IMG/VR virus record: IMGVR_UViG_3300045999_003867 | Span: 1 to 35,814 of that record | Origin: a virus | Direction: 5' to 3' (one strand) | DNA: 35,814 nucleotides | Shown here: piece by piece, positions 4,778 through 10,632 of the stretch | How the letters are laid out: the number at the start of each line of letters is the position of its first letter | How positions within the stretch are numbered: position 1 is the stretch's first letter | Notes under the pieces: model-generated | Told to the model about the DNA's origin: nothing | What the model saw: the letters and a program-made list of their open reading frames with translations, nothing else | Database searches by the model: none | Translations under genes and position numbers: made by a program

Positions 4778-5170
4778 ATGATGGAGTATAAGTTCCCAAT
4801 CAATCCCGTTGCTGCTTCCCGTCCACGGGTCAGCAAGTTCGGTGCATATTTCACGGGACCTTATAAGAAGTTCCGCTCGGCTGCTGCTATTATAATTAAT
4901 AGAGTACTCGGGCGAAACTTTACTCCACTGAGTGGCAAACTTGCAGTAGATATTAAGTGCTATGTAACAAGACCAAAGACAACTAAACTAGAATATCCAA
5001 AAGCTGATGTAGATAATTACAGTAAGTCAATTCTAGATTCGTTAAATGGTAAGTTGTGGGATGATGACTCCCAAATCATTGCTCTGTTTATTTCAAAACA
5101 ATGGGCAGAGCCAGGTGAAGAGGGATATTTCCTAGTTGCTATAGAGGAAATTAAAGTTGAATATCACTAA
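4778..5170 (+). CDS. rusA: RusA-type Holliday junction resolvase
   Basis: The protein is 130 residues (Escherichia coli RusA about 120). RusA cuts four-way DNA junctions symmetrically. The active-site pattern is visible: KADVDNYSKSILDSL with Asp77, Asp79 and Asn80, followed by LWDDDSQI with Asp95-Asp97 (E. coli RusA Asp70, Asp72, Asp91). The N-terminal SRPRVSKFG segment is also typical. It occupies the slot where T7 carries endonuclease I, just after SSB, so it presumably resolves replication and packaging intermediates here. Two adjacent ATGs (4778, 4781) follow AGGTGACTC; either could start it. Confidence 0.9.
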   Translation: MMEYKFPINPVAASRPRVSKFGAYFTGPYKKFRSAAAIIINRVLGRNFTPLSGKLAVDIKCYVTRPKTTKLEYPKADVDNYSKSILDSLNGKLWDDDSQIIALFISKQWAEPGEEGYFLVAIEEIKVEYH

Positions 5171-5534
5171 GTATCGTGAAATCGCAAGAGAAGAGTTCTT
5201 TAATATTGAGAACTGGCGTCCTCACAACCATGTATCAATCATTATCCGTAATGATCGAATTCTTGGAATTGGAATTAATAAAAGAAAGACCCATCCTATG
5301 GCTATGAAATATGGCTATAGGAGCTGCGAACTCCACAGCGAACTCGATGCACTTTTAAAAATTCCAAAAAATGTAAGAGACAACCTTGTCTTGCTTAATT
5401 TCAGGTTTGGTCCAAAAGGGAATATGAAGCTATCCAAACCATGTAATTTGTGTCTACCTTGGTGTATTGACACATTTGAAGAAATTTATTATTCAGTCCC
5501 AGATGGACTTGTTCAGTTGGATTATAAGGTCTAA
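5157..5534 (+). CDS. dCMP/cytidine deaminase-like zinc enzyme
   Basis: The protein is 125 residues, read from TTG 5157. GAGGAAATTAAAG immediately upstream is a good ribosome-binding site and no ATG lies before the conserved core. The zinc-deaminase pattern is HSE (His60, catalytic Glu62) and PCNLC (Cys96, Cys99), within a fold that begins HVSIIIRNDRILGIGINKRKTHP. The HxE...PCxxC pairing, the length, and the company of ThyX, ribonucleotide reductase and dNMP kinase favour dCMP to dUMP conversion feeding ThyX. A tRNA- or base-deaminase role cannot be excluded from sequence alone. The start overlaps the resolvase gene by 14 bases. The stop abuts the folded RNA at 5535. Confidence 0.8.
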   Translation: MNITKYREIAREEFFNIENWRPHNHVSIIIRNDRILGIGINKRKTHPMAMKYGYRSCELHSELDALLKIPKNVRDNLVLLNFRFGPKGNMKLSKPCNLCLPWCIDTFEEIYYSVPDGLVQLDYKV

Positions 5535-5652
5535 GGTTGTTAACAGTTGTTGTTCTATATCTAGTGTGACTGGGCGGTCCTACTCCGCATACAAGGAACA
5601 GTCGTATGAACTATAGTGATATAGAATGGAGGCTCGCTACCTCCAACAACCA
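5535..5652 (+). ncRNA. Unexplained folded RNA with tRNA-like acceptor and T-arm
   Basis: The element begins at the base after the deaminase stop and ends 5 bases before tRNA-Ile. Pairings read directly: GGTTGTT (5535-5541) with AACAACC (5645-5651), 7 bp, followed by an unpaired A; next to it a T-arm-like hairpin GGAGG/CCTCC (5628-5632, 5640-5644) with a 7-base loop CTCGCTA; and a long stem TTCTATATC/GATATAGAA (5553-5561, 5618-5626). Inside are GACTG/CAGTC (5568-5572, 5599-5603), crossed by CATAC/GTATG (5588-5592, 5604-5608), a possible pseudoknot. GCGG/CCGC (5574-5577, 5585-5588) is an alternative hairpin sharing base 5588. At 118 bases it is too long for a tRNA and has no anticodon arm. The T-loop deviates from TTCRA. 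Function is unknown. Confidence 0.5.
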
Positions 5653-5657
5653 TTAAC

Positions 5658-5732
5658 GGAAGGGTGCCTGATATCGGTAAAAGGTGGTCACTTATAATGG
5701 CCCTCATGTGGGTTCGACTCCCACCCCTTCTA
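5658..5732 (+). tRNA. tRNA-Ile, anticodon UAU
   Basis: A complete cloverleaf can be drawn. The acceptor is GGAAGGG/CCCTTCT (5658-5664, 5725-5731; first pair G-U). The D-arm CCT/AGG has a loop containing GG. The anticodon stem is GGTCA/TGGCC with loop CTTATAA. The variable loop is CTCAT, the T-arm GTGGG/CCCAC with loop TTCGACT, and the discriminator A. The anticodon TAT (5693-5695) reads AUA. Bacteria usually decode AUA with a CAU tRNA modified to lysidine, so a direct UAU tRNA is unusual. CCA is not encoded. Confidence 0.9.
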
Positions 5733-5745
5733 CATAACAATAATC

Positions 5746-7120: not shown

Positions 7121-7211
7121 ACAAAGAGCAGCCATGTAGGGAATGGCGGATACGACAAGTTTTGCGCCTGTGATAAAACCAGGACATTGGGTGTAAATCC
7201 CAACTCTTTGT
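7121..7211 (+). ncRNA. Second folded RNA with tRNA-like outer arms
   Basis: It lies 5 bases after the preceding stop and 5 bases before tRNA-Arg. ACAAAGAG (7121-7128) pairs with CTCTTTGT (7204-7211), 8 bp. TTGGG/CCCAA (7187-7191, 7199-7203) with 7-base loop TGTAAAT stacks directly on it like a T-arm. GCCA/TGGC (7131-7134, 7144-7147), two bases after the acceptor and with GGG in its loop, looks like a D-arm. The remaining 39 bases do not form a 5-bp, 7-base-loop anticodon arm in any register I tried. They can instead pair as CCTG/CAGG (7167-7170, 7180-7183) or as GGCG/CGCC (7145-7148, 7165-7168), which competes with both other stems. It may be a decayed class II tRNA or a relative of the element at 5535. 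Confidence 0.45.
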
Positions 7212-10559: not shown

Positions 10560-10632
10560 GCCCTTATAGCTCAGCTGGTAGAGCAACCGACTTTTAATCG
10601 GTTGGTCGCAGGTTCGATCCCTGCTGGGGGCA
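10560..10632 (+). tRNA. tRNA-Lys, anticodon UUU
   Basis: Acceptor GCCCTTA/TGGGGGC (two G-U pairs), D-arm GCTC/GAGC, anticodon arm ACCGA/TCGGT with loop CTTTTAA (anticodon TTT), variable TGGTC, T-arm GCAGG/CCTGC with loop TTCGATC, discriminator A. It lies three bases after tRNA-Leu. Decodes AAA/AAG, abundant in the many Lys-rich phage proteins. CCA is not encoded. Confidence 0.95.

What the first reader, a model, noticed from the sequence alone, without database searches (positions are those of the whole stretch)
5535..5652. Folded RNA with tRNA-like acceptor and T-arm and a possible pseudoknot (mini-tmRNA-like topology)
Directly after a stop codon and just before tRNA-Ile lies a 118-base element closed by a perfect 7-bp acceptor-like stem. 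A 5-bp T-arm-like hairpin is stacked on it, and a 9-bp long helix leads to an internal domain where two 5-bp stems cross (GACTG/CAGTC and CATAC/GTATG). The helix pairs are too extensive for chance in such a short AT-rich gap. There is no anticodon arm. tRNA-like domain, then long helix, then pseudoknot is the plan of tmRNA, but the element is much shorter and has no obvious tag frame. It might also be a tRNA-mimic acting on processing enzymes or synthetases.
Basis: partly seen in the sequence, partly recalled or inferred. Interest (0 to 1): 0.75.

Follow-up and report, generated by a model that had tools for sequence, protein, structure and literature searches.

The report
Phage tRNA-like RNA without anticodon
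A group of aquatic phages carries, beside its real tRNA genes, a small RNA folded like a tRNA but with the code-reading arm replaced by a longer hairpin; its shape is kept by paired mutations even where its sequence has changed greatly, so it is probably a working tRNA mimic of unknown target.

Summary
The element is real. Its layout (7-bp acceptor, 5-bp T-arm, long helix abutting the T-arm) occurs once in the window and never in 20 whole-window shuffles. Fourteen distinct homologues of 91-94 nt fill the same slot in related phages: acceptor, 3-bp D-arm with GG loop, 8-bp helix, hairpin with invariant loop TTCGCAGA, canonical T-arm; 99.7% of cells pair and 9 of 28 pairs show double changes. 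The window copy is a strongly diverged member: 56% identical to L002 where flanking genes are 83-90% and three of four tRNAs 95-96%, yet no equivalent pair is broken. It is not a small tmRNA: no G3-U70 pair, no conserved tag frame, no tmRNA match beyond the T-arm; the pseudoknot is at chance level and conflicts with the conserved nested hairpin. A second tRNA-like RNA, with a GACAA pentaloop instead of an anticodon loop, precedes tRNA-Arg (7124-7208) and also covaries. Best reading: a non-decoding tRNA mimic cut out by tRNA-processing enzymes, probably uncharged (discriminator base varies), acting on an unknown tRNA-handling factor; a cis processing signal is the main rival. Closest precedent: phage T4 stable RNAs C and D, function unknown.

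The parts
5535..5652 (+). whole tRNA-like RNA (locus 1), diverged member of the family
   Evidence: layout unique in the window; same slot and equivalent helices in 14 distinct homologues
5535..5541 (+). acceptor stem, 5' strand GGTTGTT
   Evidence: pairs with 5645-5651; family AGCTATY, changed at pairs 1, 3 and 5 on both sides
5542..5551 (+). D-arm, 3 bp AAC/GTT with 4-nt loop AGTT
   Evidence: fold; family GAC/GTC, GGC/GCC covary
5552..5561 (+). long helix, 5' strand
   Evidence: pairs with 5618-5627; 8-bp counterpart covaries in relatives
5564..5607 (+). inner hairpin GTGTGACTG/CAGTCGTAT with a small GCGG/CCGC hairpin in its loop; in relatives a shorter hairpin with invariant loop TTCGCAGA
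   Evidence: fold; family hairpin covaries
5618..5627 (+). long helix, 3' strand, abutting the T-arm
5628..5644 (+). T-arm GGAGG-CTCGCTA-CCTCC
   Evidence: family GGNGG-TTCGATT-CCNCC
5645..5651 (+). acceptor stem, 3' strand AACAACC; 5652 is the discriminator position
5658..5733 (+). tRNA-Ile(TAT), directly downstream
   Evidence: ARAGORN, Rfam 45.6 bits
5746..5774 (+). terminator-like hairpin and T tract after tRNA-Ile, also seen in relatives
7124..7208 (+). second tRNA-like RNA (locus 2), directly before tRNA-Arg, with a GACAA pentaloop in place of an anticodon loop

Best explanation
The element is a small non-coding RNA gene with a tRNA body. It keeps acceptor stem, D-arm and T-arm but has no anticodon: a long helix capped by a hairpin stands in place of the anticodon arm, with no variable loop. 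It lies in the operon tail between a deaminase-like gene and tRNA-Ile. Inferred: it is cut out of that transcript by the enzymes that mature tRNAs (RNase P at 5535, 3' trimming near 5652), is not charged with an amino acid, and persists as a stable tRNA mimic that engages a host or phage factor recognising the tRNA acceptor and elbow, while the extra arm gives it its own specificity. Shown here: structure, conservation by compensatory change, position, fast divergence on the window branch, absence of a decoding arm. Not shown: transcription, processing, charging state, target.
For: Covariation in 14 homologues, 99.7% of cells paired, 9 of 28 pairs with double changes, all slid registers fail. 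Same slot in all of them, beside tRNA-Ile. Window copy: 0 of 28 equivalent pairs broken, 18 identical to L018 against about 6 expected, 16 of 18 changed letters transitions. Divergence far above that of flanking genes and tRNA-Ile, -Arg and -Leu with pairing kept, as for a structure under selection. Invariant loop TTCGCAGA on a covarying stem suggests a recognised site. Discriminator base A, T or G in the element but always A in tRNA-Ile, against charging. A second non-decoding tRNA-like RNA in the same genomes. T4 RNAs C and D show that phages keep such RNAs (PMC3014915, PMC9697503).
Against: No expression or processing data. The window copy has lost the D-loop GG, the canonical T-loop and the TTCGCAGA loop, so it may no longer form a tRNA elbow. 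The family model scores it only 20 bits, close to ordinary tRNAs at 17-19 bits. Known so far only from one group of phages; sister phages lack it at this place.
Confidence: 0.5

Rival explanations
1. A cis-acting processing signal: the tRNA shape serves only to bring RNase P and 3' enzymes to the junction between the deaminase-like mRNA and tRNA-Ile, like plant mitochondrial t-elements; the excised RNA is waste.
For: Sits a few bases after the stop codon and 5-7 bases before a real tRNA, in an operon tail that ends in a terminator; the discriminator base is not conserved; t-elements are cleaved, CCA-tailed and not charged (PMC11658184).
Against: A processing signal would not need the extra covarying arm with an invariant loop; the adjacent tRNA-Ile already offers a processing site; sister phages have a small ORF or nothing between the same genes.
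Confidence: 0.3
2. A decaying tRNA pseudogene in the window phage.
For: The loops that make the tRNA elbow have changed and the sequence has diverged fast.
Against: None of 28 equivalent pairs is broken and most changes are paired; decay would break pairs. The 14 relatives have intact, covarying structures.
Confidence: 0.06
3. A miniature tmRNA that rescues ribosomes.
For: The tRNA-like half has the tmRNA plan: reduced D-arm, long helix directly abutting the T-arm, no anticodon. Some phages do carry tmRNA genes (PMC9004378).
Against: No G3-U70 pair in window or family; no conserved tag frame (a 9-codon frame AYKEQSYEL in the window, a stop after three codons in several relatives, from the sequences); pseudoknot at chance level; Rfam tmRNA matches only the 17-nt T-arm of a homologue and nothing in the window copy.
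Confidence: 0.03
4. A real decoding tRNA with an insertion or intron in the anticodon arm.
For: Acceptor, D-arm and T-arm are tRNA-like, and the gene stands next to tRNA genes.
Against: The 8-bp helix is too long for an anticodon stem, no variable loop remains, and no excision that I could see restores a 5-bp stem with a 7-nt loop; ARAGORN calls no tRNA here in window or relatives.
Confidence: 0.05

Closest known systems
Phage T4 stable RNAs C and D (species 1 and 2 RNA)
   Same: Small RNAs encoded in a phage tRNA cluster, not decoding; rnaC ends in a canonical T-arm CCGGG-TTCGAAT-CCCGG and has other arms in place of the anticodon arm. Reported as transcribed, late, of unknown function (PMC3014915, PMC9697503).
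   Different: No sequence relation found: the family model lists a T4 tRNA but not rnaC. Arm layout differs (two long arms in rnaC), and its acceptor has two U-U mismatches by my reading of the fold.
tRNA-like domain of tmRNA (ssrA)
   Same: Acceptor, reduced D-arm, T-arm, and a long helix abutting the T-arm instead of an anticodon arm.
   Different: No alanine identity pair, no tag frame, no pseudoknot domains, about a quarter to a third of the length; Rfam tmRNA covers only the T-arm of a homologue.
Plant mitochondrial t-elements
   Same: tRNA-like sequences at mRNA ends, processed by tRNA enzymes, CCA-tailed and not charged (PMC11658184).
   Different: t-elements are homologous to tRNA genes; here a distinct arm with an invariant loop is kept by covariation, and the genome is a phage's.

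Membership tests
tmRNA | alanine identity pair G3-U70 in the acceptor stem | tested here: not met
   Pair 3 is U-A in the window and C-G in all 14 relatives
tmRNA | conserved tag reading frame with stop | tested here: not met
   No shared frame: 9 codons in the window, stop after three codons in several relatives, none in L002 (sequences)
tmRNA | pseudoknot domains | tested here: not met
   Crossing 5-bp stems in the window at chance level, and not the conserved pairing
tmRNA | match to Rfam RF00023 or RF04321 above the gathering score | tested here: not met
   Window: none. Homologue L012: 13.9 and 11.3 bits over the 17-nt T-arm only, gathering score 47
tmRNA | tRNA-like domain with long helix abutting the T-arm | tested here: met
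canonical tRNA | anticodon arm with a 7-nt loop | tested here: not met
   8-10 bp helix plus hairpin with an 8-nt or larger loop; no ARAGORN or Rfam tRNA call
canonical tRNA | acceptor stem, D-loop GG and T-loop TTCRANY | tested here: inconclusive
   All met in the 14 relatives; in the window the acceptor is perfect but the D-loop is AGTT and the T-loop CTCGCTA
canonical tRNA | conserved discriminator base, as expected for one charging enzyme | tested here: not met
   A, T or G among the homologues; tRNA-Ile next door always A
T4 RNA C / species 1 RNA | homology to T4 rnaC | tested here: not met
   Model R1 over the T4 tRNA region lists a T4 tRNA but not rnaC; one-directional test
T4 RNA C / species 1 RNA | stable small RNA made in infection | not testable with these tools
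   Needs RNA from infected cells
t-element (tRNA-like processing signal) | cleavage by RNase P and 3' enzymes, CCA tail without charging | not testable with these tools
   Needs RNA from infected cells or in vitro processing

The most novel reading that the evidence does not exclude
The two anticodon-less tRNA-like RNAs are phage tRNA decoys that act in trans on host tRNA-handling or tRNA-attacking factors; the rapid, pairing-preserving divergence of the window copy marks an arms race, and T4 RNAs C and D are an independent case of the same strategy.
Probability: 0.2. Interest if true: 0.85.

Novelty: new variant of a known kind. Interest (0 to 1): 0.6.

Why it matters
Phage tRNA clusters are usually read as translation aids. 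Structured, covarying RNAs with tRNA bodies and no anticodon, beside real tRNAs and not called as tRNAs by ARAGORN or Rfam, suggest a second, non-decoding use of tRNA shape by phages. They also give comparative material for T4 RNAs C and D, whose function is reported as unknown.

Tried and rejected
The 16-mer GGCGGTCCTACTCCGC found only unrelated contigs, L003-L006. blastn of the window locus in the phage collection gave nothing, and of a homologue only short chance matches. A T-arm pattern with loop CTCGCTA found 23 viral contigs, none an evident tRNA-like element by inspection of the context, so no close relative of the window variant was found. A strict family pattern had no match in genome contigs. 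Hits of TTCGCAGA plus a T-arm outside the phage group read as ordinary tRNAs or chance. I first thought that the element and the tRNA-like RNA before tRNA-Arg excluded each other between phage clades; members of the family turned out to have both, so that idea was dropped. The pseudoknot was tested and not supported. A scan of ten whole records for acceptor plus canonical T-arm found such orphans in the five nearer genomes and none convincing in the five more distant ones; reversed sequence gave none. A 9-codon frame in the window (AYKEQSYEL) was considered as a tag and rejected because it is not shared.

Full report
What is there. The window is a fragment of a podovirus-like phage with a T7-type RNA polymerase, RusA, primase-helicase, DNA polymerase A and a class II ribonucleotide reductase (IMG/VR record; the DNA polymerase is named by eye). 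Between a deaminase-like ORF (5157-5534; HSELDA and PCNLC motifs by eye, no Pfam or PHROG match) and tRNA-Ile (5658-5733) lies the 118-base element. It folds as acceptor 7 bp, D-arm 3 bp, long helix 10 bp, inner hairpin and T-arm 5 bp. The energy z-score is a modest -2.08, but a search for the layout itself finds it once in the window and not in 20 dinucleotide shuffles.

Homologues. The polymerase, RusA and a DNA pattern brought in the same locus from related phages. In 14 distinct sequences the same slot holds a 91-94 nt RNA: AGCTATY acceptor, D-arm with loop TGGY, one base, 8-bp helix, TA, hairpin with the invariant loop TTCGCAGA, a single strand that ends ATGGT in most members, T-arm GGNGG-TTCGATT-CCNCC with no variable loop, one unpaired A, and the acceptor 3' strand. 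On the stated structure 99.7% of cells pair, 9 of 28 pairs change on both sides, the covariation score exceeds all 500 shuffles, and every slid register fails. Both controls have known limits (relatedness; structure taken from the same sequences), but together they make a conserved RNA structure hard to doubt.

The window copy. Its sequence looks unrelated at first, and the model built from the others scores it at only 20 bits; it is still the best match in the window, just above ordinary tRNAs. Three facts tie it to the family: identical slot, with the same bases AAGGTCTAAG before it as in L002; same layout; and helix-by-helix equivalence. Of 28 equivalent pairs none is broken in the window. 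Against L018, 18 pairs are identical (about 6 expected for unrelated helices, P about 6e-7, one of several comparisons) and 16 of 18 changed letters are transitions; against L002, 12 pairs changed on both sides and 25 of 27 changed letters are transitions. The helices compared were placed in register by me, so these numbers are indicative. Meanwhile the element is 56% identical to L002 at aligned positions, where tRNA-Ile, -Arg and -Leu are 95-96%, tRNA-Lys 78%, and the flanking RusA and deaminase-like genes 90% and 83%; L002 and L007, whose deaminase-like genes are 77% identical, have elements 82% identical. The window branch therefore changed fast while keeping its pairing, by local evolution or by exchange with an unsampled lineage. 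It also lost the D-loop GG, the canonical T-loop and the TTCGCAGA loop, and its inner hairpin grew.

Not a tmRNA. Acceptor pair 3 is never G-U; no tag frame is shared; the pseudoknot is at chance level and uses strands of the conserved nested hairpin. Rfam gives no tmRNA match in the window copy and only the 17-nt T-arm in a homologue. Nor is it a decoding tRNA: there is no anticodon arm, and the base after the acceptor stem is A, T or G in different members, while the neighbouring tRNA-Ile always has A.

Wider picture. A second tRNA-like RNA lies before tRNA-Arg in the window (7124-7208) and in many relatives; its small arm ends in a GACAA (or GATAA) pentaloop, and 8 of the 10 pairs of its acceptor and T stems have changed on both sides. 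Sister phages without the first element have a 67-72 nt RNA at that second place with a short loop such as GACAA or GACG. A more distant genome (L028, record G011) has two other orphan tRNA-like RNAs, one with a long helix abutting the T-arm. Five more distant genomes gave no convincing case.

How it most likely works. Inference: tRNA-processing enzymes cut it from the operon tail that ends at the terminator-like hairpin after tRNA-Ile; it is not charged; and it persists as a tRNA-shaped RNA engaging a factor that recognises acceptor and elbow, with the extra arm adding specificity. A pure cis processing signal, as for plant mitochondrial t-elements (PMC11658184), is the main rival and cannot be excluded. 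The closest precedent is T4 RNAs C and D, small RNAs of unknown role from the T4 tRNA region (PMC3014915; late expression and Northern blot in PMC9697503); rnaC has a canonical T-arm and no anticodon arm in my fold. A shared mutation in the rnaD region of a T4-like phage evolved on a new host strain (PMC12685909) hints that such RNAs can matter for host adaptation.

Limits. No expression data, no cultivated relative, host unknown, and no close relative of the window variant found.

Noticed in passing
window 7124-7208 (+): Second tRNA-like RNA directly before tRNA-Arg: acceptor AAGAG/CTCTT, D-arm, small arm with a GACAA pentaloop, T-arm with loop TGTAAAT. Relatives have it recoded by double changes.
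   Followed up: partly
L023:6425-6494, L025:17010-17080, L081:6123-6191, L083:4040-4108, L088:5544-5613, L093:4040-4106: Sister phages have a 67-72 nt tRNA-like RNA directly before tRNA-Arg whose anticodon arm is a short stem with a loop such as GACAA or GACG.
   Followed up: partly
L028 record G011:C1:61331-61436 and about 61445-61545: Two adjacent orphan tRNA-like RNAs; the first has a long helix abutting a canonical T-arm, like the window element.
   Followed up: partly
L010:6600-6710, L093:3980-4035, L214:8800-8840: Sequence near tRNA-Ile or tRNA-Arg of the form GGGATTGCGTTTAATCCNTAGAAGAACGCA (variant in L214), which could form a small pseudoknot (GGATT/AATCC crossing TGCGT/ACGCA); in L010 it is followed by an ARAGORN tRNA with a 4-base anticodon call (taaa).
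   Followed up: no
L027, place before tRNA-Arg: The second tRNA-like RNA has an AAGAG 5' acceptor strand with a GCATCC 3' strand, which do not pair: a recombination joint or an assembly chimera.
   Followed up: no
L142:3386-3458: tRNA-like sequence right after RusA with a canonical T-arm and an arm TCCGC-TAT-GCGGA that cannot hold an anticodon loop.
   Followed up: no
window 10560-10632 (+): tRNA-Lys is only 78% identical to that of L002, while tRNA-Ile, -Arg and -Leu are 95-96%: possibly replaced by exchange.
   Followed up: no
window 5157-5534 (+): ORF with zinc-deaminase-like motifs (HSELDA, PCNLC) but no Pfam or PHROG match, conserved with and without the RNA element.
   Followed up: no
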